Shown in pieces: positions 1-58,345 of a stretch of DNA of 64,000 nucleotides. Position 1 is the stretch's first letter. Every line of letters begins with the position of its first letter. The stretch lies in the NCBI GenBank assembly GCA_021927905.1, contig BLLK01000047.1, positions 1,550,001 through 1,614,000 on the forward strand, given 5' to 3'. The position numbers and the translations under genes were made by a program. The DNA comes from Chaetoceros tenuissimus. Lineage: Eukaryota > Bacillariophyta > Thalassiosirophyceae > Chaetocerotales > Chaetocerotaceae. Below the pieces are notes generated by a model. It ran no database searches. It saw nothing but the letters and a program-made list of their open reading frames with translations, and was not told the origin of the DNA.

Positions 1-74
1 GCTTATTGAAAGAAACAATATGGAATGAAAATTTTTTATTATTGAGAAGGAATAATTTGGATCGAAACTCTTAC

Positions 75-1183
75 CTGAACTCCATTGCACAATGTTCTGT
101 AAAATTTTCCAAACCACTGTCGCTGGACAAAAGAACACATAGTCCTGCATCCAATGACATTGTCATTTCTCTCTCGCGTTCCTTCTCCATTGGCGTCCTT
201 TGCTTTGCTCCAATGATACTCGCTCTTCCAGTCTGAATATTTGGAATTGGACGACCATATCCCAACTGAGTTTTACTTCTTGACTTTATTTGGCTCAATA
301 CGGAGCTTCCTGAAGAAAAATAGCATGGAATTAAAATCATAGATATAGAGAGAAGCATTTGTTGCAGAACGTAGAGTATCATTAGAAAATGATGATGCTT
401 CAAGGCTGTCAACACGAAATACGTCACATTGAAACCGAGAAGGATAACTATATTTCTCGTAATTTCTCTGCGAATCCCTAGTGCATCGTTGCAGTGTCTC
501 ACCAAAACCATTGATATGATTGCCAATATTGTAAAGAAGATTGCAAATCCTCGCCCAATGTGAACTATAAAATCTGGTTCTGGAAAGCATTGGCTCATCC
601 CAGTTGCTTGAAGATGATCTTGTGGACTCAAGCTCAGCATCAAAGTAAAGAGAATTAATGGGATACATATTAGGACACACTTGATAACTTTGACAGTCAA
701 TTTCATTTTTCGACGAGTCTCCTTAGCTTGCCATTTCGCACTTCTTTTGAGACTCTCGTTGGCATTTTCTTCGACTCTTCCTGATTCCTCGTCAAGCTTT
801 GAGCTGACTTCTTGCACAACATCAAGTGAACTATGGTGTATAGTTCTTCGGAGATGAGCAGTCTCTCCGTGCTTCAGAATAAGCTTGTTATGTTCCAACA
901 TCCCCCAGAGTGTAACTCCTCGTAGAAGTTGTGGGCCCACCGTCAATGGAGGCAGCAAAATAAAAATTGTGTAGTAGATACCACATATTGCAAAGTCCCA
1001 CAGACTAAATATGAGATTAAGGTAGGCAATCCACGAGGCAATCGAACAAACTAGAATCATGTTTGTATTCCTTTTCTTGAAGGACACGTCCTCCCGCTTC
1101 GTCCACATCATTAAGTAGCATGATAATTCAAAGACTGGAAACAGTCCTAGAAGAATGTACGCAATAACTTCCCAAGCTTTCAT
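75..1183 (-). CDS. Seven-transmembrane protein, first exon (partial at window edge)
   Basis: The protein starts at 1183 and has seven hydrophobic segments in order: residues about 5-28, 42-66, 67-90, 167-187, 206-228, 240-262 and 266-290. A basic and acidic loop of about 75 residues lies between the third and fourth. A Ser/Thr- and Arg-rich tail follows. The frame appears to stop at 71, but a consensus donor (CAG then GTAAGAG on the minus strand) sits at 75/74, so the first exon most likely ends at 75 and the gene continues left of the window. The 7TM layout followed by a further C-terminal part resembles receptor-like 7TM proteins, some of which carry an RGS domain in algae. That part is not visible here, so the family is unproven. 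Positions 233-1183 are repeated at 8929-9879. Confidence 0.7.
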
Positions 1184-1910
1184 TACATCTCCCGAACTTG
1201 GTAAACAAAGAGAAAGGTAAGGTTTTAAAAATCCTGGTTCGAGTAAGGACGGAAAATGCTGACACCTTTCTCGTCGGTGTCATCTTGTGAAAAATTAATG
1301 TACGTACTTCTTTTGTTTTTTTTCGAAAGATTCAGATACGTAGTTTCGACTAGGACTTTGCTTCTTTCCCAGAACCTCTTCAATTTATTGCTATTGATTC
1401 ATTTCTTGCTTTCATGTTTGTGTCAAAAAAACGGCGGGGAGGATTAAAAGGTTTCTCACTCTTTAGTCTATAATCTCTGATGCGCATGTACATAATTTTG
1501 AAACTCTTGTGATTCACTTTCACCTTCTTTACATTTCGTACGTACAAAATAACAACGCTTCTGAAAGGGCATGAGACTGAAACTGCGTATGTGTAGATTT
1601 ATCATCATGTCCTTCTGTTCTTTCACTTGCATAATATGATTATCTTGAACTTGGACTAGTGGCATCAATCACTTGACCCACAACTATACCACCGAAGATT
1701 CATCAAAGAGTCAATTTGATATTGGTAAGCTACAAGTCGTGATGAAATCAGCTACAAGTGTATCTTTAGCCAAACCAGTGACAAAAAGAGGAGGTATGTT
1801 TGCTTTTGATGAGTCATTGTCTTCGCGCCAAATGACCACTTTTTCCTCGAAATCCAACATGCATGAGAACATGTCGAAACCCATCTCAGCTTTCCGATAA
1901 GAGGATCATG
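233..1910. repeat. Left copy of the 1,678-bp direct repeat flanking the LINE
   Basis: The block is repeated at 8929-10606 with a constant offset of 8,696. Every stretch I compared is identical, and the translated frames inside the two copies are identical. It starts inside the 7TM coding exon and ends in the spacer toward the TALE gene. The first two bases (CT) are also the last two bases of the LINE tail, so the boundary is ambiguous by 2 bp. It occupies the place of a target-site duplication but is roughly 100 times longer than usual for a LINE. Confidence 0.95.
1184..1910. promoter_or_regulatory. Upstream region of the 7TM gene, left duplicate; orphan copy of a possible TALE first exon
   Basis: This stretch lies between the 7TM start and the LINE junction. 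It is repeated base for base at 9880-10606. Before the LINE arrived, it was part of the head-to-head spacer between the 7TM gene (minus) and the TALE gene (plus). It includes a short open frame at 1673-1900. Its first 121 bases (1673-1793) end at a GTATGT donor and match the possible first exon of the TALE gene in the right copy. Here that exon is orphaned, because the LINE follows instead of the TALE coding exon. I see no other gene. Confidence 0.5.
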
Positions 1911-2259
1911 ACTTGCCTTTGTCACACTAATCCATGACAACCAAATCCAACGTCTCCGCCATAGGACCAACCATATACTCCAAAACTATGATAACATTGC
2001 TATTGACTTCCACTCCCAATTCGGAAACAGTGCCTTACCTGCGCACCTAATAAATCCTAAAACTCGCTCGCCACCGGCTGCTAACACAACCATTCCAATA
2101 TATATTGATCCTCTTTCCGAACCTAAGCTCGTTCCGGCGGTTGGTCCCGTCCAACAAAAAGAAGCAACACGAGCTACTCAACAAAGGCAGGCCGATCCAC
2201 CTCCAGGGAAAGCCCTTCACTTTGTAGAAATCATAAATGACGAAGTTGGACCACATGCC

Positions 2260-5200
2260 ATGGAATATAACCCTGATGAGCCCTTTACGGCTGCTGACCT
2301 CAATACATATCATCCTCACTCTCATGAATTTCCTGGGGCGGTCCAGGAAGAAATTATACAAGCCCATGCACTCTTTATCCAAATAACAGAAACGCTGAAG
2401 GACAAACATCAAAACAACATTGGTAAACCGGAAACACAATGGCCCTTCACAGCGACAATCGAACAATGCCCCATTACAAATGCTTCAGTCTTGCATTATA
2501 ACAATTCACCAATAACTATGAAGCCTAAAATACCTTATGTTCCCTCTACTGCACGTCTAAATGGATTCACATTGAATGTCCTAGCCAGACTTCACCCCTG
2601 CTGGATGCGATCCTTGGATAGACTCACTAATCTTGTCCTCGCTACACGGATTCTCCCTAAATCTCTTAAAACTACAGGCAGAGTCCTTATTGACAAGCCT
2701 AACTCAACAGACAAACGACCAATATCCATTCTACATGCCTATGATTCATACATCGACACAATTGTAGCAACTCACCTTGCTAAGGCAGTCGAGGATCTAC
2801 AGATCTATGATGACACCATTGCGGCATATCGCCCAGGTCACTCATGCTCTGACTGCACTCTAAATCACCTCCTAGCTATTCAAGACACCGTTGCAAGAGA
2901 TGACTACTACCTATGTCAACTAGATGAAGATAAAGAAAAATTCTTTGATCGAATTACCACAGAACTCCAACTGCTACCATTCCACCTTATGGGATTTCCA
3001 AATGAAGGATACATAGAATGGATCGCTGAATCTCTTAACAATGTTGCCATCCTCACAGCAACTCCGTTTGGTTCCGTAAAGACTACGTTCAAATGCGGAG
3101 TTCGCCAAGGCTCAGCCCTATCCTGTGTAATTGCCAATGCTGTTGCCTGGCTCAGTGCTGCCCCTTGGTCACTAGATATCGATGATACACCTCCACCAGG
3201 ACATCAGCCAGTACAACTCCATCCTTTTGACATTACCCATAACAACTCCGGTATGCTTAATAAGTTCTCCTATTGTGATGACTCGTCGGCATACATAACT
3301 AGCACAGATATTGAACAACTCTTCGAATTCATAGCACGAGACATCACCATGTCTAACACCATATCCATTGTTACCAAACTTAGCATAAACGCAAAAAAGA
3401 GTCACATTCGAATCACCAACCTGCCGTCTAGGTACCCTATTCCGTCCTTTCACTATATCTCTTGGCATCATGGCACCAAGACAGTCCAAGCAAAGAGAAT
3501 TCCTACCAGTAATATGACAGATAAACGACTGACAGACTCCTCTCGTCTCTTTGGAACTTACTCCAATGGTAAAGGCCATACCCAGGAAAATCAGAGACAA
3601 CACTTTCCAAAAATGCATGCAACAAGGGCCTCCTTCAAAAACTTGAACCTCCAACCTGCTACCTTCTCCACACAATTTCCGGCGCTGGTGACCTCGACGG
3701 TAAACTTTAATGTCCTTGCGATGTCATACAACCTTGAAGCAGCTATCAAGGACGATTACATTACTATATACAAATATGCAGCTCCAATCTTTGGCATTCA
3801 CCCAGCAGCAGATTCCATGTATTCAATGTTCCTCCCTAAAACTGCACTGGGTCACAACTTTACTGGTATACTTACCCTCCAACTAGCAATTGCAATAACT
3901 CGTGAGCTATTTGTAACACTCAATGCCCCTCACCATCAACAAACATCGCTCCTTCAAGTCCGTGCTAGAGCCATGCTTCACAACCTAACTATAACAGCCT
4001 CAACCTATGATCCTCTGGACATACTTCCGCATGCTATACATCAACTTGCTCTACTCGGCATCTACCTAGTTCCTACAACATATCCCATTGCAAATCAAGC
4101 ACTAGCGCAGCTAATACAACATGACATAAGTACCACAGCCATCGGAACACCTAAACAGCAATCACATCGCACTCGATCTCCCCTTGACAATCTACTAAAC
4201 GGAAATAACATCAAATTTGCAAGTATCGACCCTATCTATCGGTCCCTCCTGATTACAATATGGTCCCTTGCAAATACCGTAAACAGTCCTTACCACCGAT
4301 CTGAACCATTCAAAGAAATATTCTATGCCACCAGTATGCCCACACCTGTGCAAAATCCACATCACACGCCTCAAACAAGAGTCATTAATGTCCGTGCGGC
4401 AGCCATTGAGCTCCAACCTCAATATAATCACCTATCTCACTTCCTTCAGCTAGATTTCCTCAGTCAGCGTCGAAACTTGCATAAACCGGAACACTTCCTC
4501 AATAATAATCCACTCTTTCCTTCAACCTTTGTGCTTCACTCCCTCTTTCCAGCACATGATAATGCACAAACAAACTGGCCAGATTCACCTATAACATCGC
4601 TTCATGCCTTCCATGAACGCAATTCCCTCGCTCTAGCTCCTGAAAGCTCCACTTTCTCACATGTGCAGCACGTCCTGGATCATTACAATTCACCACTTCT
4701 ACTTTCATCTGACTCAGGCCACTGTCGAAGGACAGGATTCACTGTTGCCGCCTCCATCCTCATGGCACTTCAAACGGAGCCAGACAATACAAATGATCCA
4801 GTCAAATATGATGAACCACCAATTCCAATCCTTGTCCGAAATCACATCCTGGCACAAACATACGGTACCAAGACCACAGACAATAACATGGGAGAAGCTC
4901 AAGGACTGATACTGTCCCTATACATGGCACCGAAAGACATACATGCAGTCTTCCTTCTTGACTCCAAAATAGTACTACTCCAAGTCCTGGCATACTTCCA
5001 GCCACATGCTGCAACAATCCGACATCAGCTTCGGACTCATATTCACACCACATCCATTCATCATTACTCAGAACTTCATCAAGCCTTAGCTCGTCATTGG
5101 CCAAATGCCAACCATAGACCATCATCGGCCTCATGTGAAAAATCACCATTCCTGGTCCATCGCCACTTTCAACTTATCATCCAACATCTCCATGATACAC

Positions 5201-8200
5201 TTGGCCAAGAGGCTTTACTACACCTGACTCCTGATGCTGATTCCAATCTCCCGACACTATCTGATGTCACTCATGGCTTCCAGATTGGACACCACCTTTT
5301 TCTCCACATTTATTCGCATCAACTTACTAACTATGGCAAACGTAAACTAGATCCAGACACGAAACAACCAATTGATCCGATTCCAAACATGGCTTTCGCC
5401 TCAGCCAACACCTGGGCTGATCGCCCTGCATCAAGGATGGCTGAAGCACTTCCCACAGATCTGCCACAAATCCTCCTGGATCACATCTCACAGCCACCAA
5501 TGACTCGAATTCAATATACCTACATGCATGAGTCCAAACTGGTAAACACTGATCACACTACATACCTTAGGGAACAATGGACAAAACACAATATGGAACT
5601 AGCGGCTCTCCGACAAGACCACTGGTACCTCCACCTTCTTCCGTCGTTTGCAGATCCAACTACAACCTTCAACACAGATTCCACACTACGTAATCTGGCA
5701 CAGGAAAGAGCCCTGTCCCATCAACGACTCCTTCGGATAAACCTAACCTACCGCCAATACTTTCAAGCAAAATGTCATCCATGTCAACAAGACCTACCTC
5801 GAAATGTTATCTCGACACAAATGCAACTATGCCCACTGTGTCCCGTAACATCAACACCAGCAACCTCACTGCACTATCACATTCAATGCACATCTCACAA
5901 AATAGCTCTAAATCGAAAACAACTCACTAGAAAAATAGAAAAAATACTTAGCGACCTTGACGCCATCACCTCCTACATGTCAAATATCATTCATCCTAAT
6001 CACAGGTATCGACACAATAGAATCCCTCTCTTCACGACCTTCCTTCGTACAGCAATCAACCATACCGGCTTAATCAAGCCCCTTACACCATCTCAAAGGC
6101 AGAAATACTACTCCACAACAGTCTATCCGCCATTTCAAAGCATCACCTATGACAACATACCTGACTGGAATGGCCATGCTCTTACTACACCACCGAATCG
6201 CCTCACAAGTGCCCATACATCGTACCTTATGGGGCTACCAGAAGAAAACCTCCCAGCTTATCCAACAAATCATTTTCATGTCATCCCACTGCTTGGACTT
6301 CTACCAACAAACACACATATTGCCATCCATGAATACCTCAACATGATCCATCACAAATTCTGCAAGGCAATTCGAGCAAGATCTCCACAAGTCTTACCTT
6401 CTCCCAGTCCAAAGGTTACAATCGAGTACATTAAACAACTATTCCGAGCCGAAACTGATATTTCACTCCTTGCCACGTTCAGTGACACAAAGACACTACT
6501 TGAGATCCTTCAAGACAAGTTCCTCCTTCTCCTTAAAAGTCTCATGAAAAAAACAAAGAACTTACAGGGAACTATCAGCCAGGCACTTCGTGAAAATCAA
6601 AGAAAGCATGTTCCACCTTCACCACCTTCTGCTAAGCCTCCAAAACGTAAACTCATTCATGAACACAGCACCTGTGACATAAACGATGGTCAACCCAAAT
6701 CTAAGAAAAGGAAGCGTCCCATCCCAAATAAACTCCCCACCTATCCCTGTCCTGGAAGATGGTGCACACTTCGAAACTCAAAGTCATTATCGTATACCAT
6801 GTCCACAATGAAAAAGAACTGTACTCTCTGTCAACACATTCAGCTTGCTACCACCATTGCCACCACTGTAACTGCTCATATCATCTGTGATGAAGCAGCA
6901 CTGTCTCTTATTTTAGAATATACCAACATAGATCCCCAGCAATTTACAGTGGGAAACATAGCCACGAGACTCGCACTCAGGCAAACTCCTCTCGACGAAA
7001 TACGAGATATCCTCTCTAATGCCATCTCTCATACAGAGACAAAGCTCTATATCTCTGACAAAATCACCTTCCTTCCCCTTGGTGATGCCCTCTATGAAAC
7101 TCCAGATGCTCAACTTCAGGAACTTGTCCTTCACCTAGTTGCATATGCCTGTCTCATCCCCATTACTCCACCGCTAACGAGAGAGTTCCCACCTCTGACT
7201 ACGGAACGGCTCCAAGACATCATCGAGCGAGCTCTAGTCTTCTGTACTTGTCCAACACCATGTCCAGCACCAAATCTACATACAAATCTGTGCAAACTTT
7301 GCTCCAACCTTATCTTAAATAAGCGGAATTCCCTTCTTCGACACCACGACCAACGTTGCTCCACCTGCATCACGTGTGACAGAGGGATCCTCCTTGCCAA
7401 ATATCCCAATAAACCATGCGACATATGCCTTCAGACAGCAATTCTCGTTCAAAGGAATCCCAGGGAAACATGGAACACCCTTAACAAAGCTACATCACCG
7501 TCAGTGCTCCCACACTTGCTCCCAACACCCTATGCATACATCCATAACGTCCCTAGGATCCGACCAAGTCCGCATTCGTCTTCTCTACCACCAGAAGATA
7601 TATATCAAACTCGTGACCCAAGAAATCCTCGCCCTCAGCTAATGCCCAACGAAGATCCAGACTTCCATTACCAGGACTGTTATGAAGAAGAGTCTTTCCT
7701 TGATATGAAAATCTTTCCACCTCGTCCTCCTTTTATGCCGTTTCCCCGAGTGTATGCACCTATAGCGATCACTACGGATATTACCTTAACAAATCTTCAT
7801 CTAGCATTACACCCAGCACTCTACAGACCCGACTATGCAGGGCTTCACCTCCACTACAAGAGACCATGCTTCCCTAGGTTTGAAGGCATTCGACCACCAG
7901 CATTTGGATACTATCCTGAAATGTATTTCGATCAGAATGTACAGGCCCTAGCACGAGCAATGCCATCATTGGACATCCATGAAGTTACAAGCAGCATGGT
8001 ACACCCAAACCCAAGCTTTGTTACCAGCTCCTCCTGGTACCATCACACAACAGTCACCTGGACCTTCCTTGAACACCCTCAGCCTCGTACGAAATGCCCA
8101 AATGAACGCATTTATAAGACGCCAGTCACATTCATCCTCACATTCTATCCACCAATGACATACCTTCCACCATTCCAGATACGACTACACTTCAATCCCA

Positions 8201-8571
8201 ATGACATGGAACGAGATCTACCACCGCGAGACAATATCCTCACTTCAGATATAGCCATAAAGGAGCTTGACAAAAATGAAGATCCTACCCTCTACGCGCT
8301 CATGCTAATATACCTCATTATTACACTACCGCCTCAATTCCTAAGTGACGATACAGTCTCAGCTTTCATGTTAACTTTTCCGGAGAACCTAAGGCAACTC
8401 CATCACGAAAGCTCCTACCTACATGCCATCCTCCATGATGAAAACTATAGCCAAGCCCTACACCACATCACTACCCCATGGAAACTCACATACGAACAAC
8501 AAGACGAAGACTATTCCGACCATCCAAATGACAGACCAAGACGATACAATCCTGACAACCCCAACCATTAA
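2260..8571 (+). CDS. LINE polyprotein: reverse transcriptase, RNase H, Cys/His clusters
   Basis: The protein is 2,103 residues from the first ATG; the frame is open for another 116 codons upstream, to the insertion junction. RT landmarks are RPISIL near residue 154, motif A (CQLDEDKEKFFD) near 218, motif B (GVRQGSALSC) near 280 and the catalytic YCDD near 338. An RNase H-like domain follows, with candidate acidic residues in SSDSGH (about 816), MGEAQG (about 877) and LLDSK (about 900). A CPLC...H...C zinc motif lies near 1190, as often seen after RNase H in LINEs. A basic patch (KPKSKKRKRP, about 1480) and a second Cys-rich cluster (about 1660-1725) lie farther on. More than 900 residues beyond the first zinc motif match nothing I know. 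The endonuclease is not identified; it may be lost at the 5' end or hidden in the C-terminal part. Confidence 0.85.
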   Translation: MEYNPDEPFTAADLNTYHPHSHEFPGAVQEEIIQAHALFIQITETLKDKHQNNIGKPETQWPFTATIEQCPITNASVLHYNNSPITMKPKIPYVPSTARLNGFTLNVLARLHPCWMRSLDRLTNLVLATRILPKSLKTTGRVLIDKPNSTDKRPISILHAYDSYIDTIVATHLAKAVEDLQIYDDTIAAYRPGHSCSDCTLNHLLAIQDTVARDDYYLCQLDEDKEKFFDRITTELQLLPFHLMGFPNEGYIEWIAESLNNVAILTATPFGSVKTTFKCGVRQGSALSCVIANAVAWLSAAPWSLDIDDTPPPGHQPVQLHPFDITHNNSGMLNKFSYCDDSSAYITSTDIEQLFEFIARDITMSNTISIVTKLSINAKKSHIRITNLPSRYPIPSFHYISWHHGTKTVQAKRIPTSNMTDKRLTDSSRLFGTYSNGKGHTQENQRQHFPKMHATRASFKNLNLQPATFSTQFPALVTSTVNFNVLAMSYNLEAAIKDDYITIYKYAAPIFGIHPAADSMYSMFLPKTALGHNFTGILTLQLAIAITRELFVTLNAPHHQQTSLLQVRARAMLHNLTITASTYDPLDILPHAIHQLALLGIYLVPTTYPIANQALAQLIQHDISTTAIGTPKQQSHRTRSPLDNLLNGNNIKFASIDPIYRSLLITIWSLANTVNSPYHRSEPFKEIFYATSMPTPVQNPHHTPQTRVINVRAAAIELQPQYNHLSHFLQLDFLSQRRNLHKPEHFLNNNPLFPSTFVLHSLFPAHDNAQTNWPDSPITSLHAFHERNSLALAPESSTFSHVQHVLDHYNSPLLLSSDSGHCRRTGFTVAASILMALQTEPDNTNDPVKYDEPPIPILVRNHILAQTYGTKTTDNNMGEAQGLILSLYMAPKDIHAVFLLDSKIVLLQVLAYFQPHAATIRHQLRTHIHTTSIHHYSELHQALARHWPNANHRPSSASCEKSPFLVHRHFQLIIQHLHDTLGQEALLHLTPDADSNLPTLSDVTHGFQIGHHLFLHIYSHQLTNYGKRKLDPDTKQPIDPIPNMAFASANTWADRPASRMAEALPTDLPQILLDHISQPPMTRIQYTYMHESKLVNTDHTTYLREQWTKHNMELAALRQDHWYLHLLPSFADPTTTFNTDSTLRNLAQERALSHQRLLRINLTYRQYFQAKCHPCQQDLPRNVISTQMQLCPLCPVTSTPATSLHYHIQCTSHKIALNRKQLTRKIEKILSDLDAITSYMSNIIHPNHRYRHNRIPLFTTFLRTAINHTGLIKPLTPSQRQKYYSTTVYPPFQSITYDNIPDWNGHALTTPPNRLTSAHTSYLMGLPEENLPAYPTNHFHVIPLLGLLPTNTHIAIHEYLNMIHHKFCKAIRARSPQVLPSPSPKVTIEYIKQLFRAETDISLLATFSDTKTLLEILQDKFLLLLKSLMKKTKNLQGTISQALRENQRKHVPPSPPSAKPPKRKLIHEHSTCDINDGQPKSKKRKRPIPNKLPTYPCPGRWCTLRNSKSLSYTMSTMKKNCTLCQHIQLATTIATTVTAHIICDEAALSLILEYTNIDPQQFTVGNIATRLALRQTPLDEIRDILSNAISHTETKLYISDKITFLPLGDALYETPDAQLQELVLHLVAYACLIPITPPLTREFPPLTTERLQDIIERALVFCTCPTPCPAPNLHTNLCKLCSNLILNKRNSLLRHHDQRCSTCITCDRGILLAKYPNKPCDICLQTAILVQRNPRETWNTLNKATSPSVLPHLLPTPYAYIHNVPRIRPSPHSSSLPPEDIYQTRDPRNPRPQLMPNEDPDFHYQDCYEEESFLDMKIFPPRPPFMPFPRVYAPIAITTDITLTNLHLALHPALYRPDYAGLHLHYKRPCFPRFEGIRPPAFGYYPEMYFDQNVQALARAMPSLDIHEVTSSMVHPNPSFVTSSSWYHHTTVTWTFLEHPQPRTKCPNERIYKTPVTFILTFYPPMTYLPPFQIRLHFNPNDMERDLPPRDNILTSDIAIKELDKNEDPTLYALMLIYLIITLPPQFLSDDTVSAFMLTFPENLRQLHHESSYLHAILHDENYSQALHHITTPWKLTYEQQDEDYSDHPNDRPRRYNPDNPNH

Positions 8572-8906
8572 AAATACAACAAAATACATAACAGGCTAAG
8601 GAATAGCTTGGGTTATAAATATTTCAACTAAGCCCTAGGAACTCTCTGCGACGTTCCTAGGCCTTATGCTGTAATGAGTACCGAGGTACTCACTACAGCA
8701 TAAGACCAGATCCCCTGCTGGCATCAAGCCACTGGGGATTACGTTCTCTATACAAAGGAGCTCTGAGAAGTACAAACACATCTCACCTCATTTGTGAGTT
8801 CATGGTCCCGCAGCGAACTGCTTTAACAAGGAGTACCATCGCCTGAAACATTGGCATGCTATATGTTGTGGAAACTTGGTGGTTCGTTGAAGTTGCTCTA
8901 GATTGT
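8572..8906 (+). other. Structured 3' UTR of the LINE with consecutive hairpins
   Basis: Three stem-loops follow each other. The first has arms 8629-8642 and 8653-8666 (14 bp, one mismatch). The second has arms 8663-8682 and 8685-8704 (20 bp, one mismatch, 2-base loop). The third has arms 8710-8722 and 8728-8739 (imperfect). The first two overlap at 8663-8666 and are therefore alternative folds in part. LINE reverse transcriptases of the stringent type recognise a 3' stem-loop in their own RNA, so these are the natural candidates for the template recognition site. Confidence 0.65.
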
Positions 8907-8930
8907 AAACCTAAACCTAAACCTAAACCT
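8907..8930 (+). repeat. AAACCT x4 tail at the LINE 3' end
   Basis: There are four perfect AAACCT units. The last CT overlaps the first two bases of the right flanking repeat. The unit is a hexamer and is not the TTAGGG repeat typical of stramenopile telomeres. It sits exactly at the 3' junction, so it is best read as the terminal microrepeat of the element. In the truncated 7TM copy the antisense of this tail supplies the stop codon. Confidence 0.85.
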
Positions 8931-9879
8931 GAATATTTGGAATTGGACGACCATATCCCAACTGAGTTTTACTTCTTGACTTTATTTGGCTCAATACGGA
9001 GCTTCCTGAAGAAAAATAGCATGGAATTAAAATCATAGATATAGAGAGAAGCATTTGTTGCAGAACGTAGAGTATCATTAGAAAATGATGATGCTTCAAG
9101 GCTGTCAACACGAAATACGTCACATTGAAACCGAGAAGGATAACTATATTTCTCGTAATTTCTCTGCGAATCCCTAGTGCATCGTTGCAGTGTCTCACCA
9201 AAACCATTGATATGATTGCCAATATTGTAAAGAAGATTGCAAATCCTCGCCCAATGTGAACTATAAAATCTGGTTCTGGAAAGCATTGGCTCATCCCAGT
9301 TGCTTGAAGATGATCTTGTGGACTCAAGCTCAGCATCAAAGTAAAGAGAATTAATGGGATACATATTAGGACACACTTGATAACTTTGACAGTCAATTTC
9401 ATTTTTCGACGAGTCTCCTTAGCTTGCCATTTCGCACTTCTTTTGAGACTCTCGTTGGCATTTTCTTCGACTCTTCCTGATTCCTCGTCAAGCTTTGAGC
9501 TGACTTCTTGCACAACATCAAGTGAACTATGGTGTATAGTTCTTCGGAGATGAGCAGTCTCTCCGTGCTTCAGAATAAGCTTGTTATGTTCCAACATCCC
9601 CCAGAGTGTAACTCCTCGTAGAAGTTGTGGGCCCACCGTCAATGGAGGCAGCAAAATAAAAATTGTGTAGTAGATACCACATATTGCAAAGTCCCACAGA
9701 CTAAATATGAGATTAAGGTAGGCAATCCACGAGGCAATCGAACAAACTAGAATCATGTTTGTATTCCTTTTCTTGAAGGACACGTCCTCCCGCTTCGTCC
9801 ACATCATTAAGTAGCATGATAATTCAAAGACTGGAAACAGTCCTAGAAGAATGTACGCAATAACTTCCCAAGCTTTCAT
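8923..9879 (-). pseudogene. Truncated duplicate of the 7TM gene
   Basis: The first 317 codons match the gene at the left edge of the window, covering all seven membrane segments, with the same start (9879). The copy then runs into the LINE tail, where the antisense of the AAACCT repeat gives a stop after one extra residue. The C-terminal tail and the downstream exon are missing. The upstream region is complete, so it may be transcribed, but its product would lack everything after the seventh segment. Confidence 0.8.
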
Positions 9880-10606
9880 TACATCTCCCGAACTTGGTAA
9901 ACAAAGAGAAAGGTAAGGTTTTAAAAATCCTGGTTCGAGTAAGGACGGAAAATGCTGACACCTTTCTCGTCGGTGTCATCTTGTGAAAAATTAATGTACG
10001 TACTTCTTTTGTTTTTTTTCGAAAGATTCAGATACGTAGTTTCGACTAGGACTTTGCTTCTTTCCCAGAACCTCTTCAATTTATTGCTATTGATTCATTT
10101 CTTGCTTTCATGTTTGTGTCAAAAAAACGGCGGGGAGGATTAAAAGGTTTCTCACTCTTTAGTCTATAATCTCTGATGCGCATGTACATAATTTTGAAAC
10201 TCTTGTGATTCACTTTCACCTTCTTTACATTTCGTACGTACAAAATAACAACGCTTCTGAAAGGGCATGAGACTGAAACTGCGTATGTGTAGATTTATCA
10301 TCATGTCCTTCTGTTCTTTCACTTGCATAATATGATTATCTTGAACTTGGACTAGTGGCATCAATCACTTGACCCACAACTATACCACCGAAGATTCATC
10401 AAAGAGTCAATTTGATATTGGTAAGCTACAAGTCGTGATGAAATCAGCTACAAGTGTATCTTTAGCCAAACCAGTGACAAAAAGAGGAGGTATGTTTGCT
10501 TTTGATGAGTCATTGTCTTCGCGCCAAATGACCACTTTTTCCTCGAAATCCAACATGCATGAGAACATGTCGAAACCCATCTCAGCTTTCCGATAAGAGG
10601 ATCATG
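8929..10606. repeat. Right copy of the 1,678-bp direct repeat flanking the LINE
   Basis: This is the partner of 233-1910. It carries the 5' part of the 7TM gene, the complete spacer, and the possible first exon of the TALE gene, and ends 77 bp before the ATG at 10684. Because it spans the whole former spacer, both the 7TM gene (left) and the TALE gene (right) still own a full upstream region despite the 7-kb insertion between them. Confidence 0.95.
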
Positions 10607-11661
10607 CCCTCATAATATTTCAAAACTGCTTCTATTCACCAAGGCGAAGCTGGCATAATTACACCCAATTCTGATAATTAGAAATGACAAAGATTATCCT
10701 CCCAGAAGTATCTACTGAGAATTCTACAACTAAATGGCAAGCAGTGGATCCACTAGAATTTTCGGTGATGATTGCTAATGCTGCTGGAATTGGGCAAAAA
10801 AAACAAAATATTTATCACAATTTCCTTACTCAAGCTATTCCTTCCACCCAATCCATCGCATGTGGTTTTCTTCCATCAGATCTGAGCGAAAAAGTGGAAG
10901 ATGGTAGATTTGATGAAGATGACGAATTAGGATCGAAAACTTCAAACTCTAACAAGAAACGCACTCGAAAAGATACTATTGCTGTTACTAATCCGACTGT
11001 GCAGGACGAGAAACAATCCTTCTCTTTCCTCGTTACTCAAAATCCAACTTGCCCAACTGCAAAAATGGCAGTAAGTCAGTTGCTCCAGCTTTCTCAGAAA
11101 CTAGAGTCCACAAATACCGTCACGAGAGCCTCTTACGAAGTTTTTCTGAAAGGTCTGATGGACAAGAGCACTGCGCTATACAATAGTAAATCCACTGCAT
11201 GTGAAAAAAGCATTGCGTTCGCAGATCTTTACTCGAAATCCATTCTACATCTCAAGGCCATAGTTGCACTAGGACTTGCACTGAAAGAAGAGGATGGGGT
11301 GACTTCTTTGACATCAAAAATTTCGAGCGATGAGGATGATGAATACATGGACGACGAAGATTATCTTAATGAACCGTCAAAGTCAAAGAAAGTCTACAAC
11401 AAGAAAAAGTTCACCAAATATATGAATCAATGGATGGTCAAAAATTGGACGAATCCTTACCCAGATGATGAAGGCCTTGCAGTTATTGCAGACGAACATG
11501 GCACGACTCCCATGATTGTCAGTAATTGGCTCATCAACGCAAGAACAAGAAAGTGGAGACCAGCTATTGTGAAGGCTTTTGAAGCTGGCAGACCATCTGA
11601 ACTATTGTTGGAAGACTCAACTCGTATCTTTGAGGGAAAATCACTTCGAAAGCTAAAGTGA
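10369..11661 (+). CDS. TALE-class homeodomain transcription factor
   Basis: The certain part is the 325-codon frame starting at ATG 10684. Its C-terminal third holds a TALE homeodomain: a basic start (KKVYNKKKFTKYMNQW), the three-residue PYP loop extension, and a recognition helix with SNWLINARTRKWRP, equivalent to the WFxNxRxR core. An acidic stretch (SSDEDDEYMDDEDY) precedes it and a basic run (NKKRTRK) lies near residue 95. A spliced model is also possible: exon 10369-10489, intron 10490-10681 (GTATGT...TTAG), exon 10682-11661. It joins in frame and adds about 41 residues. The junction of the 1.68-kb duplication (10606) would then lie in this intron. Such proteins bind DNA in the nucleus; TALE factors control life-cycle switches in several algae. 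Confidence 0.88.
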
Positions 11662-13040
11662 ATGTAAAGGTAGTCATAGTGTAATCGTTTAAAATTTATT
11701 GTTTTGTTTGTTTTGGTTTCTCATGATTGAAGCGTCCCAAAAAGAGAAGTGAAAAGAAGCATATCAATTTTTTTGCCCACCCACTTTCACTTATTGTTGA
11801 TCAACTGAAGAAACCTCACTGGCCAACTTCATCTGTTTGGGATCTTTCGTTTGATACATATTCATTCGTCATTACCATGCTCCAATAGCAACGGAAGACT
11901 AGTTCTAGTGGCCTTTGTCGAGGCTATTATCATTATTATTACCTGGGACAATGTCTCGCATAAATCCGATGGTTCTGGTTTCATCTTTCAATATTTGTGA
12001 TCAAAGTAATCCTAAGTATCCAAGGATTGATTACCCTAATTATCATATCTTTGCTCGAGAACAAAATATTGACATTATCATATGATAGTATAGAAAAAAC
12101 GAGCTAGTATGATGAAGTAAAGCTGATGTAATTTATATCTCTCCTTCTTTGCCTAGTCTGCTTTTGCTCCTACATGTCTAACAATGGTGGTTCTCCTCGA
12201 CATGCGCTTACACTAGGTTCAAGTAGACTACTATATCCATCGTAGATCATGTTCCTAAATCAAAAAGTTGACGCAGAGCAATAGAGAATTTTTATTGTCC
12301 TTAGCATTTGTTGTCATGCATTGGATTATCGGGAATCGGATCAGATAACCTGGATAGGATCAATCATACCCATGCCAAATCTGCAATCCATGTCAATTTC
12401 ACATAGAGTCAGTCTGAAGCCATATGAATAGTCACTAGCTAGGAACATACTCAATTTTCAACAGAACTAGAATTGTTATTCATGACGCGTTTGCCATGGC
12501 TTTCAATTTTATTCTGCATAGTAAAACACATCAATCGAAATATTGACGGGAGTAAAAGCAAAATCCTTCTCTTGCACAGATCAAGATTAATTATCAGAAA
12601 GAACATGATCCAAAGTTGTTCAAATGAATACAACTCTGTAAGTTCATTGAGGTGCAATGAACTGGATTCTTTGGACAACTGTGAGAAAGATCGAAGCTTC
12701 GAGACTTTACAGACGGAACTCGACTTTAACGGCGACCTTTGCTGCTCTTGTTCAATAAATCATGATAATGAGTTTATTAAAGAGTAAAGTCAAATGAGAA
12801 TGCATTCAAATTACAGAAGATATTCGATTTTTTCGAACAAGAAAGCAAGGTCAAAAAAGATCGGGTCCTACGACGAAGGCAGTCTTGACCCATCACATGA
12901 AAACCCGGAGAGCGATGTCGATGATTGACAGAAAAATGGATACGTATGGGATGTGGACTTGGTAACTACCATTTTGTTGATGCTGTGTAAAGTAGTTCAT
13001 CAGTCTATACGCACACTAAGACCTCACTGTAATCGACATC
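11662..13040. other. Intergenic region, 1.4 kb
   Basis: AT-rich spacer between the TALE gene and the thymidylate-synthase-like gene. Overlapping open frames on both strands at about 12451-12787 show no recognisable domain and no splice context. I see no RNA gene or clear repeat. Confidence 0.5.
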
Positions 13041-51221: not shown

Positions 51222-51491
51222 TGTTAGCTAGCCAGCGACCAACGCCAACAAAGTCTTTGATTCCCTCACCACCACTCACGCGGAGAATGGGATGCATGAT
51301 GCGGACAAGTACGTGCGTATGATGCATTGCCAGGACCGTTCTAGTGACGTGGAATAGCCTTCAGGTACAAGCCAGTACAGCATTTCTCTCAGAGAGAAGC
51401 TGCAGCAGATTAGGTCCATCAGTGTGAGCTCACTTTCTTTTGATTGCAAGAAGTATTCAACTCCAACAAGCTCGCAGCCTTTCTGTTGTTT
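51222..51491. repeat. Left copy of a 270-bp direct repeat bracketing the repeat desert
   Basis: The block starts TGTTAGCTAGCCAGCGACC and is repeated at 58076-58345 with one visible difference. Minus-strand frames cross both copies (for example KESELTLMDLICCSFSLRE) but are not conserved beyond the repeat edges, so I do not call a gene. It could come from a segmental duplication or be the end repeats of a large non-coding element. No polymerase or capsid gene is visible between the copies. Confidence 0.9.
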
Positions 51492-51639
51492 TAGACGAGT
51501 TTCCTTTCCTGTCTCCCTCTCTAGATTCTCTAGCTCCGTCGATCCAGAAATGCTCTCTTTTCTTGTCTCAGTTTCATCACTTCTTGCAATCATGTCTTCA
51601 TAAAGTACAGCCATCTTCTCAGGCACATTTCCAAGGAGT

Positions 51640-53400
51640 TGTCTCAGGTCATCTCATGGAGTTTCTGGGCTTTTCAGTCTTTTTGATTAGCAGCTTTGGT
51701 ACATTCCTACCATTTTGCAGAGTTGAGTCGGACGTGGAGTTTTCAGGGCTTTCAAGCCCTTTTGATTCATTGTATCAGTACATTTTTATCATTTAGGGAG
51801 TTGATTTGATGTTTCAAGGCTTTCAAAGCCCTTTCAGTTTTTAGCTTCGCTAATTTCATACAGTTTCGCAGAGCTGAGTGGATGTCATCGATTCACAGCT
51901 TACTGTTTCGCAGGGTGGAGTTGATCATTGTGTTGATGCAGAGTTTTTTATGACATTCTAAGCCTTCTTTTACCGTGGCTTTGGTACATTCTCATTCATG
52001 GAGCTGATTTGAAGTTGGCGAAGACTTTCAAAGTCTTTTCGGTTCGTAGTTTTGGTACTTTCTTGCCATTTTCAGAGTCAAGTTGGAGTAGAGTTTCGTA
52101 GCTTTTCAAGCCTTTCTGATTCACAGCTATGGTACATTCCTACCATATAGTAGTTTTTGAGTTGAAGTGGAGTTGGGTTTAGATTTCTCACGGCTTTTCA
52201 AGCCCTCTCGATTCATTGTCGGTAAATTCTCTTGTGGTACTTTCTTGCCATTTTCAGAGTCAAGTTGGAGTAGAGTTTCGTAGCTTTTCAAGCCTTTCTG
52301 ATTCACAGCTATGGTACATTCCTACCATATAGCAGTTTTTGAGTTGAAGTGGAGTTGGGTTCAGATTTCTCACGGCTTTTCAAGCCCTCTCGATTCAATC
52401 CTTCGGTATATTCCCACCGTATTGCCTGCGTTGAAGTGGAGTCTTTTGGCTGTTCAAGCCTTCGTGTTTCATAGCTTTCGGTATAATCTAATACTTGTGA
52501 TATAGCTCTGGTATATTCCTACCATCTCAAGAGTTGATATAAGAGTTCTCATGGCTTTTCAATTTCAAGCCTTTGTAATCCATTAGAAATGCAATAAGTG
52601 TTGAGTTGAAGTACATTTTCTGGTTTCCAAACCTTGTGTTTCATAGCTTCGCGGCTCCTCAAGCCCATTTGATCATAGCTTCAGTACATTTTACTGCTCA
52701 GCAAAGTTGCCTCCGGTTAGAGCTTCTTCAAGCCTTCGTGCTTCATAGCTTTGATTCATTTCTACCACGTCAAGTGTTGCGTGGAGGTGGATTGTCTTGG
52801 CTTTTCAAGCCTTTCTGATCGTTTCTTCGATACGTTCTTACTGGTGTGGAGTTTCTCTGCCTTTCAAGTCTTCGTATTCACTTTCTCGCCAGAAAACAAG
52901 TGCTGCATAGACGTGCAATTTTCACGGCTTATCAAGCCTTTCAATCTATAGCTTCGGTATATTCTTACCGTTTAGCAGAGTATTGTAGGTGGAGTTTTTC
53001 TGGGACTTCAACCCTTTCCAATTCATCGCTTCAGTATATTCTTACAGTTTAGTAGAGTTATGTTGATGTAAAGTCTCTTGGTCTTTCAAGCCTTTGAGTT
53101 TTCATAGCTTTGGTTTTTTCTTCCCGTGTGTCGAGTCCCGAGTGTCGCATTGCTGAGAAGTTTTCAAATGCCCTTCTAGAACCTTTCTATCCATAGCTTC
53201 AGTGCATTCTTGCCATTTGCAAAGCTTTCTAAGCTGAGATTTACTTTGGAGTTTTCAAGGCCTTTCTAGCCTTTTTTATTCAGGGCTGTGGGGTACTTTT
53301 ACCATTCAACAGAGTCGTTGGAGAGGTTTCGCGGCTTCTTATGCCTTTTCGAATCATGACTTTGGATAATTTTTACCATCTCCAATTCCAAATTGATGTG
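51640..53400. repeat. Decayed minisatellite, unit roughly 70-95 bp
   Basis: About twenty degenerate units. The core is a short palindrome, GGCTTTTCAAGCC, with variants such as GGGCTTTCAAGCCC, GACTTTCAAAGTC and CGGCTTATCAAGCC. It is followed by TTTCTGATTCATAGCTTYGG, TACATTCYTACCAT, then GAGTTGAAGTGGAGTT. Unit length and spacing vary. Within it a two-unit block is duplicated almost unchanged (52053-52216 and 52236-52397), so some turnover is more recent than the rest. The compensated changes in the palindrome hint that the stem was once maintained. Confidence 0.78.
52053..52397. repeat. Recent internal duplication inside the minisatellite
   Basis: Two copies of about 162 bp, at 52053-52216 and 52236-52397, nearly identical (a few differences), offset 181-183 bp. 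Each holds two minisatellite units. Confidence 0.85.
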
Positions 53401-54222
53401 TTTCTATAAATTAATTTGTCAACAGAAGGTCTGATTTACTTTCCGCATTAGTACTCAATACTATGCACATCCTTCTCGGGAGTGAGGGTGCTTAGGAGTG
53501 CAAGGGACTTTGACTCTTTATCATATCATCAAACGTTTAATCATATCTTCCAAAAGAGTTTGAATTTCAATCTATTCACTCATTGTCGACATTTTAGTCG
53601 GACTCACCCCATCTATCGTTGGAGTTTCATTTCAATTGCTTCATGTCATATCATAGTGGTCTATAACTTGCTTGAAGTTTGACATATGCAAAGTTTTCGG
53701 AGCTCTATCCATCGGACGGTGTCTGCTTCACTTAAGTCTTGGTTTCCTCATCTCACGAAATTCTCTCCCATCTTCCCACTCGCAGAGATGATATCATTAG
53801 AGAATTTGCAATCGTGCATTTTACCAATAGTCCATTTGTGTTTGCCATCAGCCGCTGGGCAATGGAGCTCGGTTTCATATGAGCCTTTCCATTCAACGCA
53901 ATCTTAGACTTCCGTAGAGTTGATAAGGAGCTCTAAAGCGGTGAAATCATGAATAGGTGGCACATTGGTATATCTTGCCATACAATCAATAATCACTTCA
54001 TTTCAACCTAACCATTCGGAATTCCAGGGTTCCAATTCGGTCGACTTTGCGTACCTTTCCCTTTGGGAGATTCAGCGCTTTCGTACATTTTCTCATTTCT
54101 GTAGAGATTGGTTTCGGTTGAGTCTTTCGGATTCAACGTTGGATATAGCTACAATTTGGTGGAGTCAAGGTTCACTATTTTACACATCACAGCTTATCAA
54201 TAGACATCGTTTGAGTCATTGT

Positions 54223-54327
54223 CATTCAACATTCAACATTCAACATTCAACATTCAACATTCAACATTCAACATTCAACATTCAACATTCAACATTCAAC
54301 ATTCAACATTCAACATTCAACATTCAA
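54223..54327. repeat. Perfect heptanucleotide array (CATTCAA)15
   Basis: Fifteen uninterrupted CATTCAA units, 105 bp, followed by three CTCCAT units at 54328-54345. Perfection shows recent slippage, and the array should be length-variable. Confidence 0.97.
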
Positions 54328-56755
54328 CTCCATCTCCATCTCCATTTCAGAGGTTTTGTTGCAGAGTTTCCAAATGATCGAACACATGGATTCAATACTT
54401 CAATACATTATACGATCCGCTAAGCTTATTTCGTTCGGTGTTCCCACTCAGGCACACTCATTCATATACCTCTCATTGCCATACATTTCCTTTGCAAATT
54501 TTGGTACTCAGCAATTTTGCGATCCTCCAATCACAGAGAGCTTTATTTCATTGGCGTCTGGATCCTTTTCATTTTCCAAGATACTTTCCATTAGGAGGAC
54601 GTAGTCCATTTGCGCGTCTCCTGTCACATGGCAGAAATTTTGTTTGATTACACTCGGCCATAGCACATTCTGCTCAAAGAGTGATGATTTTATTTCAATT
54701 CTGAGAGTTGTCCTTCCAGTACCTTTTACCATTCCGACGGGATTCTGGTTCGTGATCGGGGTTAATACGTGGAGGTAGTATAATGGTGGTTTTTGCCATT
54801 TCAATTTTCACTCCACTATCTTCTTATCAAGCAGAGACAAAATCGAGTAGAATCTTTGTCATTGAGCGCATGGCTTCTTTTAACAAGACTTGCGATTCAG
54901 CATCTAGGGTACATCTTCTCGTAGAAGCAAGGGTTTCATTTCAGTTCTAAGGATCAGTATATTGTATAGAATGAACTTCGAGCCTTTCTCATTGGGCATG
55001 ATCAATATGAAGTCGTAATACCAGGAAAATCATTGCCACCAGCACATTTTTTTGCATTGGTGAGAGTTACGACTTAGCAGTGGACATTCCTAGTATTCTG
55101 TTCTGCCTGATTTCATTAGTTGAAATCTTGAGTACATCATCCCTATCAAGAGCGATTCCTTCTGCTCTAGTCCCCTATATTCAACACATCGATTCTGATT
55201 CCAAGGGGGGACACCGTGATTTCTCTCAGTTGGGTACATCTGTCCATTTCATGAGGTAGCTTGACTTCACATCGCATTTCCATCAAGGGTTTCTGATGAA
55301 TCTTATCGTTCAGTAGAGATGGTCGTATTTTACTACGAGATTCAGATTGAATTTCGGTCTTTCATTGAATTATCTTTGAATCAAATGTGAAAAATCGTTC
55401 TCACGGGTTGATTCATGGTTGCTGCACTTTTCCCATTGAGCGAGTTCCGCTTTGATTACATTTGAGCCTAGTCATTGACATTTTCACAGAGGATGTTCCC
55501 TACTGACCCCTTGAGACCATATGATTCCAAATAGACTTGTTTTTCAGAAAGTACACTGTTGTAGATATTTTTCATTCTGCGTGATATCCCACCAACATCC
55601 TTTCAGTTTGAAGTCATCATGGTTATTCACTCTTCAGAATTTTCTCCAAGACCTTTTCTCACTCATTGTGGAGGGACGTTAAATCAGCTTGTTATCCATC
55701 CGAATGATGTGTTGGTCAAGGGATCTATTGTTTAGACGATCTCATATCAAATCAACATTTCAGAATTTCTTCTTGAATCAAAGTTTCATGGAAATGTCGA
55801 AGTTGTATGGTTGTAATCGAGGTCAAGCAAGATTTCCACTCTTTCGAATTCTTTTTCTGATCAGTCAGAAAATGTATGTTTCAGTATAGTCTATACAGCG
55901 GGGTATGCATACCCGAGTCCACTTCATAGCATCTTTTCTCATGAATATGTGGACTCTGTAACTGATATTTCGTCTAGCAGGTCTTATACCAGCCTGTACC
56001 TTCAACATTTCGGAGCAAATCCACATTCATTTTGTTCAGGTCACCTTTACATGGAAAAAGGAGATTGGGCATCGACCTCTTCGTTTTACTCACTAGAGAG
56101 TAGAGCATGGATATTGTTTCAACTCAGCAATTTTTCTCACGGCTTGTCATCTTCATTTTGGAAGAGTACTGCATTGCTCATCAAAACAGTTCCTTTGCAG
56201 ATTTTAGTCTTTTGACGCGTCATCACCAAGCATCCAAATTTTGAAAAAATGCAGAAGGGTACTCACAAACATTGTCTTCATTTCTTCGCCATTCATCATG
56301 GAATCATTCGCCGTTCATTCCCATGTCGAAAATCACGTTGAATAATGATAGATGCTTCCAGTCGTTCTTCATAGGCCAATATTGGAAGAAATTATTTCTG
56401 TTTCTGGTGGACAAATTGTGTTGATTTCATTTTTACTTATTCATCTGATTCTCACAATTTTCATGTTTTGCTACAGCAATCCTCTCCCATGTAGACCATG
56501 TCACAAGCATCCTCAATGACAAATGGACAATCTTCGGTTACGTTACTCTCTTCATAAATTTTCGAACCTCAATGAATGATGATACGGTAGCCATTTCATG
56601 GTATACAAGCCAATGTTCCAATGATTCCTTTGGTCATCAGGGATTTGTATGCTCTGCAAAGAAATCCACAGACACATTAAGTCGAGTTGGAATACCACCA
56701 TGATTATCTATTGCAGATTTCAAATCATTCTATTAGATTGAGGCCGATATACCAT

Positions 56756-57570
56756 CCTTCAGTGATACTCATCACACCATCTTCTAGCTCAAGTTTCAGA
56801 TGAAGCAATGACATTTTCTCATCACCAATCCTGTCACACCTTTGTTTCGCGGAGTCACCGGACACTCTTTTTGGATCGACTCTACAACATTCAATGTTGT
56901 GCGAGGAAATCACAGATGCTATCTTCAGCACCTTTCAACTTTGGATAATTTCCGCTCTGAGATCACAAAGGCTCAATCCTTTCTCCACCATTCCATGGAA
57001 GTCAGTAATTAAAAGAACACGCAACTCTCTTTCCACAACTTCCGTGTAGAGGATATCCGGACCCAGAAGTCTCTTGGATCGGGAGCAACTCATACACACC
57101 CATTCTCAATTGTTACTTTTTAAACTCGACGACAAATTCTTCAGTGATACCCATCACACCATGTTCTAGCTCATGTTTCAGACAAGCAAATCAATGATTT
57201 TTTCTCACAAAAAAATTCTATCACTCTTTCACTGAGTAACTGGGCACTCTTTATGGATCAACTCTACCTTATTCAAACAGACGGAGATTATCTGCAACAC
57301 TTCTCATCATTTCCAATGCCCGAACATTACTATTTTCTATGGTTTGCTGCCAAAAGATTTCAATCCTTCCTTCGGACCTTTTCTCTCTTCATATTTATTC
57401 AGCAGTTACATCATTCAAAGCTCGAGCCTTTCTCCACTATTTAGTGGAAGTCGGTATTGAATAGAACAGACGTCCTTTCTTTCTACAACTTCCGTATAGA
57501 GGATGTAAGCCCCAGAAGTCTCTTGGATCAGAAGCAACAATTCAAAACACTCATTCTCAATTGTTATTTG
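56756..57570. repeat. Diverged tandem duplication of about 0.4 kb
   Basis: The copies are about 56756-57119 and 57139-57570. Shared landmarks in the same order: CTTCAGTGATACYCATCACACC, TTCTAGCTCA, GGCACTCTTTNTGGATC-type, CCTTTCTCCACYATT, CAACTTCCGTRTAGAGGAT, CCCAGAAGTCTCTTGGATC and CATTCTCAATTGTTA. The copies differ by substitutions and indels, so the event is old. Confidence 0.75.
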
Positions 57571-58075
57571 TTGGATCTCAACGCAGAATCGGCTTTGAAT
57601 ATTTCAGATATTCATCCTGTGTCTTTCCATATGATGCATTGCTGTCTCTCAAATTGAGCAATCTCTACGCACGACATCCAACTCATGCAAATTACAGTGT
57701 CAGCAGACGATCAAACACCTTTGAAAAATTCAGAAGGTTCACACTTTCCATCATAATTTCAGTCTTCATGAGCTACTTTGCTTGCATCCCATCTTTGTCT
57801 CTTCTTCGTTCTCCATATCTCTCGCCTTCTTTCACTCCCTTTCCTCGGAGTTTTTCTTTTTGGCTAGGTCCTCGTCTCTCTCGTGTTGGTCTGGGCTTTG
57901 GTTCATGGCTGCTCATCATGATCATGTTGTCGTTCTACGACTTTTCATCATGGTTCATGCTGACGTCACGGCTTGCGCCTTCCAGACCACACAACAATCT
58001 TCCAAGGCCCCTCAGTCAACTCCGGCAAAGCTCTTTGAAGGCTAGAGAGCAGCGCCGCGAGGAAATCTCTGATTT

Positions 58076-58345
58076 TGTTAGCTAGCCAGCGACCAACGTC
58101 AACAAAGTCTTTGATTCCCTCACCACCACTCACGCGGAGAATGGGATGCATGATGCGGACAAGTACGTGCGTATGATGCATTGCCAGGACCGTTCTAGTG
58201 ACGTGGAATAGCCTTCAGGTACAAGCCAGTACAGCATTTCTCTCAGAGAGAAGCTGCAGCAGATTAGGTCCATCAGTGTGAGCTCACTTTCTTTTGATTG
58301 CAAGAAGTATTCAACTCCAACAAGCTCGCAGCCTTTCTGTTGTTT
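58076..58345. repeat. Right copy of the 270-bp direct repeat
   Basis: Same orientation as 51222-51491, offset 6,854. The right flank (AAATCCGAGTGAGTGAG) differs from the left copy's right flank (TAGACGAG), marking a sharp boundary. It ends 364 bp before the XPG-SWIM gene, so it may contribute to that gene's upstream region. Confidence 0.9.

What the first reader, a model, noticed from the sequence alone, without database searches (positions are those of the whole stretch)
233..10606. A LINE flanked by a 1,678-bp duplication of host DNA in the position of a target-site duplication
Seen: positions 233-1910 and 8929-10606 are identical as far as I compared, and only the LINE (1911-8928) lies between them. 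The left copy ends exactly at the LINE 5' junction and the right copy starts exactly at its 3' tail. Known: LINE target duplications are usually under 20 bp and only rarely long. Inference: either the two strands were cut about 1.7 kb apart (or the second cut was replaced by a distant break) during target-primed integration, or the LINE was captured while a tandem duplication formed. The 2-bp CT overlap at the tail fits microhomology. An assembly that placed two haplotypes in tandem is the main mundane rival.
Basis: partly seen in the sequence, partly recalled or inferred. Interest (0 to 1): 0.82.

Follow-up and report, generated by a model that had tools for sequence, protein, structure and literature searches.

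The report
Diatom LINE makes kilobase target duplications
A jumping gene (LINE retrotransposon) in a marine diatom is flanked, at most of the places examined in one genome assembly, by two copies of 0.2 to 3 kilobases of host DNA, where other LINEs usually duplicate about 20 bases, so it may be completing its insertion in an unusual way.

Summary
It is not a one-off. The window lies in an assembly that protein matches identify as the diatom Chaetoceros tenuissimus. The LINE's (TAAACC)n tail marks 27 tails at 25 loci. At 20 of 25, the host DNA after the tail recurs upstream of the LINE on the same contig. Sixteen duplications were measured at both ends: 171 to 3,136 bp, median about 1.65 kb. 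Copies of a duplication differ by 13 substitutions in about 24.2 kb, against 1.56% heterozygosity (PMC8613185), so they are not two haplotypes misplaced in tandem. Best reading: target-primed reverse transcription in which the second strand is routinely captured 0.2-3 kb downstream of the first nick. The source of that distant 3' end (fork or sister chromatid, far second nick, or template jump) is unresolved. Five loci show no duplication, one with a target deletion instead. Reads were not available. Seven paper searches listed no LINE with routine kilobase duplications.

The parts
233..1910 (.). left copy of the 1,678-bp target-site duplication
   Evidence: identical to 8929-10606 at 1,678 of 1,678 positions
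1911..8928 (+). 5'-truncated LINE, 7,018 bp
   Evidence: near-identical copy on contig 32; RVT_1 domain
1912..8571 (+). open frame of 2,219 codons with reverse transcriptase; no endonuclease domain in this truncated copy
   Evidence: an endonuclease frame lies upstream in the contig 32 copy
8906..8928 (+). (TAAACC)n 3' tail of the LINE
   Evidence: pattern hits at C34:1558906-1558928
8929..10606 (.). right copy of the target-site duplication
71..1279 (-). conserved gene frame cut by the first nick (at 233) but kept whole in the left copy
   Evidence: 41 relatives, the best a 370-aa protein at 95% identity; the frame spans the nick and ends inside the duplication
8923..9975 (-). truncated second copy of that frame, running into the LINE tail

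Best explanation
This is a retrotransposition product of a diatom LINE group whose integration routinely makes kilobase-long target-site duplications. SHOWN (in the assembly): the 3' tail is joined at one target point, the 5' end is variably truncated, and the other join lies 0.17-3.1 kb further along the same target. Twenty loci have duplication polarity, one has a deletion of about 281 bp, four show neither. INFERRED: the LINE's APE-type endonuclease nicks the bottom strand; the nick primes cDNA from the (TAAACC)n tail; the second strand is then primed from a top-strand 3' end 0.2-3 kb downstream, so gap filling duplicates the interval. For the source of that distant 3' end I favour a nascent strand or sister chromatid at a replication fork (about 0.5), then a far second endonuclease nick with strand separation (about 0.3), then a template jump with strand displacement (about 0.2).
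For: 20 of 25 tail loci have a second copy of the right flank upstream on the same contig and strand, 3.8-14.1 kb away. Sixteen lengths (left/right where they differ) seen at both ends: 171, 582, 795, 1090/1080, 1136, 1144, 1171/1161, 1615, 1678, 1710, 1803/1804, 1807, 1830, 1870/1868, 2388, 3136/3133 bp. Copies that are 100% identical over about 2.5 kb (contig 58 and contig 21, each against contig 48) start at different 5' positions and sit in different targets with 1,830-, 582- and 1,080/1,090-bp duplications, so each insertion made its own. LINEs with, by eye, four kinds of 3' end share the property. Copies of one duplication differ by 13 substitutions and 40 gap letters in about 24.2 kb versus 1.56% heterozygosity, which points to one haplotype. 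The within-window control is 3 of 496.
Against: Five of 25 loci show no duplication: C13:11733 and C40:4338 lie 11.7 and 4.3 kb from a contig end, C48:982233 and C62:77903 simply show none, and C14:1111722 lacks about 281 bp of target. A 171-bp LINE fragment at C21:64153, outside the 25, also shows none. Contig 33 reads LINE-R-LINE-R and may be a tandem duplication; without it the count is 19. At four of the 20 (C27, C32:2409282, C33, C48:1749633) the far end of the duplication was not read. Some targets belong to multi-copy host families whose other members are 66-90% alike. All rests on one assembly of one strain, without reads. No motif was found at 18 first-nick sites, and length does not follow LINE length (rho -0.09, p 0.77, n=14), so neither endonuclease use nor any of the three sub-mechanisms is shown directly. 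The LINE-free paralogue on contig 37 has a deletion over one duplication end.
Confidence: 0.85

Rival explanations
1. Assembly artefact: the two haplotypes of a heterozygous diploid were laid in tandem by MaSuRCA or HaploMerger2.
For: The assembly is a hybrid of Illumina and MinION reads, haploid-merged, from a genome with 1.56% heterozygosity (passages). No reads were checked here.
Against: The copies differ by 13 substitutions in about 24.2 kb, where about 378 would be expected. Tandem haplotypes cannot give junctions at two different target points with the LINE between. The structure recurs at 20 of 25 loci.
Confidence: 0.04
2. Host tandem duplications captured a LINE cDNA at their junctions during break repair.
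For: The junction anatomy is the same; a single L1-mediated tandem duplication of 22.6 Mb is described in a tumour (PMC7058536, passages).
Against: It would have to happen at 20 of 25 loci, with the tail on the same side each time. Random pieces of the window rarely have a direct copy within the window (3 of 496).
Confidence: 0.06
3. Crossing-over between two LINEs inserted 0.2-3 kb apart on different chromatids or homologues.
For: It gives the same final order R-LINE-R.
Against: It needs two independent insertions close together at 20 loci, and the copies show few homologue-like differences.
Confidence: 0.02
4. The LINE inserted between segments that were already duplicated in tandem.
For: Some targets belong to multi-copy host families, for example C32:2407782-2409279.
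Against: At the 16 loci where both ends were located the junctions sit at the duplication ends; family members elsewhere are far less alike (66-90%); a LINE-free paralogue of the contig 21 target carries the flank and most of the segment once.
Confidence: 0.03

Closest known systems
LINE-1 and other APE-type non-LTR retrotransposons (target-primed reverse transcription)
   Same: RVT_1 reverse transcriptase, Exo_endo_phos endonuclease in the longer copy, repeated 3' tail, 5' truncation, target duplication.
   Different: Human canonical insertions have duplications of median 21 bp (PMC12350158, passages); here 0.17-3.1 kb is usual.
R9 of bdelloid rotifers
   Same: A LINE with a duplication far longer than normal.
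   Different: R9's is 126 bp and called 'quite distant' (PMC6895275, passages; the R9 paper itself was not seen). Here duplications are more than tenfold longer at the median, variable, and at unrelated host sites.
L1-mediated tandem duplications in human tumours
   Same: cDNA joined to a distant downstream 3' end; the published model places it on a sister chromatid (PMC7058536, passages).
   Different: The passages describe single somatic events of megabase scale; here it is the usual outcome at kilobase scale.
Ambal clade of LINEs
   Same: A LINE/Ambal label is used for LINEs in another diatom genome (PMC12803021, passage).
   Different: Membership could not be tested here; the name is a lead only.

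Membership tests
LINE (non-LTR retrotransposon) | reverse transcriptase domain | tested here: met
   RVT_1, E 5.6e-12, above the Pfam cut-off
LINE (non-LTR retrotransposon) | APE- or restriction-like endonuclease in full-length copies | tested here: met
   Exo_endo_phos in the contig 32 copy, E 2.2e-6, and in relative P0002, E 1.1e-5, both above cut-off; not found in the truncated window copy
LINE (non-LTR retrotransposon) | no long terminal repeats | tested here: met
   the flanking repeat is host DNA that differs between loci
LINE (non-LTR retrotransposon) | constant 3' end with variable 5' truncation | tested here: met
   same tail, different 5' starts in near-identical copies; copies were collected by their tails, so the constant 3' end is partly by selection
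LINE (non-LTR retrotransposon) | short target duplication, about 20 bp (usual, not a strict criterion) | tested here: not met
   171 to 3,136 bp at 16 fully measured loci
R9 element | 126-bp duplication (fixed length and rDNA target are recalled) | tested here: not met
   lengths vary, and target flanks are unrelated to one another; the reverse transcriptase was not compared with R9
Ambal clade | reverse transcriptase phylogeny | not testable with these tools
   no reference set of LINE clades was held

The most novel reading that the evidence does not exclude
This LINE group integrates at active replication forks. The nick is made behind the fork, and the nascent strand's 3' end at the fork primes second-strand synthesis, so the interval between nick and fork is copied twice at almost every insertion. 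The result spares host genes: a gene cut by the first nick usually survives whole in the upstream copy.
Probability: 0.3. Interest if true: 0.93.

Novelty: new variant of a known kind. Interest (0 to 1): 0.82.

Why it matters
[quoted passage not shown] passages). A LINE group that routinely takes its second 3' end kilobases away, with several recent and nearly identical copies, gives natural junctions to test the models. It also means an insertion is a small segmental duplication: host genes can survive a hit, gene fragments are duplicated, and the long direct repeats permit later amplification or clean excision by recombination. The R-LINE-R-LINE-R array on contig 48 fits such amplification.

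Tried and rejected
Telomere targeting by the (TAAACC)n tail: rejected, since 25 of the 27 tails lie more than 20 kb from a contig end (the exceptions are C13:11733 and C40:4338) and this species' telomere repeat is TTAGGG. Endonuclease motif at 18 first-nick sites: no column exceeds 0.28 bits. Link between duplication length and LINE length: none (n=14). Microhomology at four 5' joins, read by eye: 0-1 bp. Structure of 1,140 residues of the C-terminal part: unusable model (mean pLDDT 37), so no fold search was run. PDB sequence search with the endonuclease frame: only heptad-repeat stretches of viral spike proteins, E 0.0015-0.038, taken as chance; with P0002 one hit at E 0.21. A bacterial-type promoter and terminator scan of 8800-9000 has no bearing on a diatom. 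A short-duplication control from the LTR-like element at 51222-58345 failed: its outer flanks show no obvious 5-bp duplication, so I have no positive control of a normal duplication in this assembly. Ten paper searches were made: seven on long duplications, one for the genome paper (43), one on replication forks (60), one on LINE clades (68). I saw their listings; passages were read in seven papers and a full section (Discussion) in PMC8613185 only. Subscription papers are mostly not held, so absence from these listings is weak evidence of novelty.

Full report
OBSERVATION. Bases 233-1910 and 8929-10606 of the window are identical at all 1,678 positions, and the identity stops at once on both sides. 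Between them lies only a LINE, 1911-8928: one open frame of 2,219 codons with a reverse transcriptase domain and a (TAAACC)n tail at 8906-8928. The window's other direct repeats are of 270 and 166 bp (megablast). Of 496 distinct random 110-base pieces from 10.7-64 kb, searched within the window only, 3 have a second direct copy, all in those two repeats. A search of the assembly with 8929-12500 found the 1,678 bp only at these two places.

WHERE IT IS. The window is part of a 41.03-Mb assembly in 68 contigs. LINE proteins on contigs of the same lengths carry the name Chaetoceros tenuissimus. The genome paper (PMC8613185; passages, Discussion) reports Illumina plus MinION reads, MaSuRCA and HaploMerger2, 41 Mb in 85 scaffolds, heterozygosity of 1.56% and TTAGGG telomere repeats. 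It mentions many LINEs, and a TTTTATG target duplication at an integrated viral fragment, that is, a short one; the parts I read do not mention kilobase duplications.

OTHER COPIES. A copy on contig 32, about 99.9% identical, continues some 3.5 kb further upstream, with an endonuclease frame (Exo_endo_phos, E 2.2e-6), so the window copy is 5'-truncated. It too is flanked by a direct duplication, of 3,136 and 3,133 bp, differing by a 3-bp repeat unit and one edge base. A minus-strand LINE on contig 48, from another subfamily (67% DNA identity), is flanked by a 1,090/1,080-bp duplication, differing by a 10-bp repeat unit.

SYSTEMATIC TEST. The tail pattern gives 45 hits, that is 27 tails. Two pairs are tandem copies with the same right flank, leaving 25 loci. 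I took the host DNA after each tail and asked where it recurs. Twenty of 25 loci have a second copy upstream on the same contig, in the same orientation, 3.8-14.1 kb away. Both large searches scored only 40 of 104 and 40 of 137 candidates, so misses are possible. One of the twenty, contig 33, reads LINE-R-LINE-R and may be a tandem duplication of LINE plus flank; without it the count is 19. Sixteen duplications were measured at both ends (left/right where they differ): 171, 582, 795, 1090/1080, 1136, 1144, 1171/1161, 1615, 1678, 1710, 1803/1804, 1807, 1830, 1870/1868, 2388 and 3136/3133 bp (some computed by hand from the coordinates). Four have lower bounds only: about 2,170 (C27), 2,198 (C48:1749633), 1,496 (C33) and 1,498 bp (C32:2409282). 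The median of the sixteen is about 1.65 kb.

EXCEPTIONS. C13:11733 and C40:4338 lie near contig ends, so an upstream copy may be missing; the C40 flank also belongs to a multi-copy family with members 87-90% alike. C48:982233 and C62:77903 show no second copy. C14:1111722, nested in another LINE, lacks about 281 bp of its target, judged against the contig 48 copy. A 171-bp LINE fragment at C21:64153, outside the 25, shows none.

WHY IT IS PROBABLY NOT AN ARTEFACT. Over the 19 pairs aligned (nine of them only in part; C32:2409282 not included) there are 13 substitutions in about 24.2 kb, plus 40 gap letters. Two haplotypes would differ by about 378 substitutions. The left join lies at one end of the target segment and the right join at the other, which tandem haplotypes cannot produce. 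Copies on contigs 58 and 21 are 100% identical to the contig 48 copy over about 2.5 kb each, yet have different 5' ends, targets and duplication lengths. By eye, four kinds of LINE 3' end occur among the loci with duplications. A LINE-free paralogue of the contig 21 target on contig 37 carries the flank and 537 of 582 bases of the segment once at 99.1% identity, but with a deletion of about 180 bp over the far end of the segment, so it is only partial support. Reads were not available, and I have no positive control of an ordinary short duplication in this assembly.

MECHANISM. Shown in the assembly: the tail end joins at one target point; the other end joins 0.17-3.1 kb further on, on the side that gives a duplication in 20 cases against one deletion and four with neither. 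Shared bases between tail and target are 0-3 (contig 33, where the upstream flank is itself a LINE tail, left out); at four 5' joins they are 0-1. No motif was found at the first nick in 18 sites, and length does not follow LINE length. Inferred: a bottom-strand nick primes cDNA, and the second strand is primed from a top-strand 3' end far downstream. Three sources are possible. (a) A nascent strand or sister chromatid at a fork, where the segment already exists twice and no long unwinding is needed; the published model for a tumour L1 duplication uses a sister-chromatid break (PMC7058536, passages). (b) A second endonuclease nick kilobases away with unwinding. (c) A template jump that displaces the DNA between the cuts, as proposed for short duplications (PMC6895275, passages). 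The broad length spread, same-haplotype copies and lack of a motif favour (a) mildly in my judgement; none is excluded.

CONSEQUENCE. In the window the first nick falls inside a conserved gene frame (71-1279, minus strand; 41 relatives, the best a 370-aa protein at 95% identity, one named from Chaetoceros neogracile). The left copy keeps the frame whole; the right copy runs into the LINE tail. Of 18 loci examined (C33 and C32:2409282 left out), the nick falls in a stop-to-stop frame of at least 120 codons at nine, and at eight of these the frame ends inside the duplicated segment, the exception being contig 21 (one of the eight, C40:42394, is a LINE's own frame; only about 100 bp of upstream DNA was held at most loci). 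Long duplications also flank LINEs at the other nine loci, so survival of genes by selection alone does not explain them.

COMPARISON AND NOVELTY. By its domains this is a LINE; its clade was not tested. Human canonical insertions have a median duplication of 21 bp (PMC12350158, passages), and the 126 bp of R9 is described as quite distant (PMC6895275, passages). Seven paper searches on long duplications listed no LINE with routine kilobase duplications; I saw the listings, not every paper. I call it a new variant of a known kind.

Noticed in passing
window 51222-51491 and 58076-58345: 270-bp direct repeats (99.6% identical) about 6.9 kb apart, probably an LTR retrotransposon; no obvious 5-bp target duplication at its outer ends.
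   Followed up: partly
window 52050-52397: A 166-bp segment present twice in direct order, 98% identical.
   Followed up: no
window 10678-11661: Frame with a Homeobox_KN domain next to the duplication.
   Followed up: no
G000 C48:1742003-1759498: R-LINE-R-LINE-R array with a 7.64-kb unit, as expected from unequal recombination between long target duplications.
   Followed up: partly
G000 C33:897408-905562: LINE-R-LINE-R arrangement; the second LINE either inserted at the tail/R border of the first or arose by tandem duplication.
   Followed up: partly
G000 C32:2210793-2211840 (approximate): The long contig 32 LINE has about 1 kb of extra DNA between its endonuclease and reverse transcriptase frames, where relative P0002 has one continuous frame; part of it resembles, in reverse, DNA in the contig 48 target.
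   Followed up: no
G000 C14:1735000-1735735 and C32:2403455-2404002: Tailed elements of about 3 kb share a 5' part, with a 155-bp piece nearby that recurs on contigs 21 and 34; possibly non-autonomous LINE derivatives with kilobase duplications.
   Followed up: no
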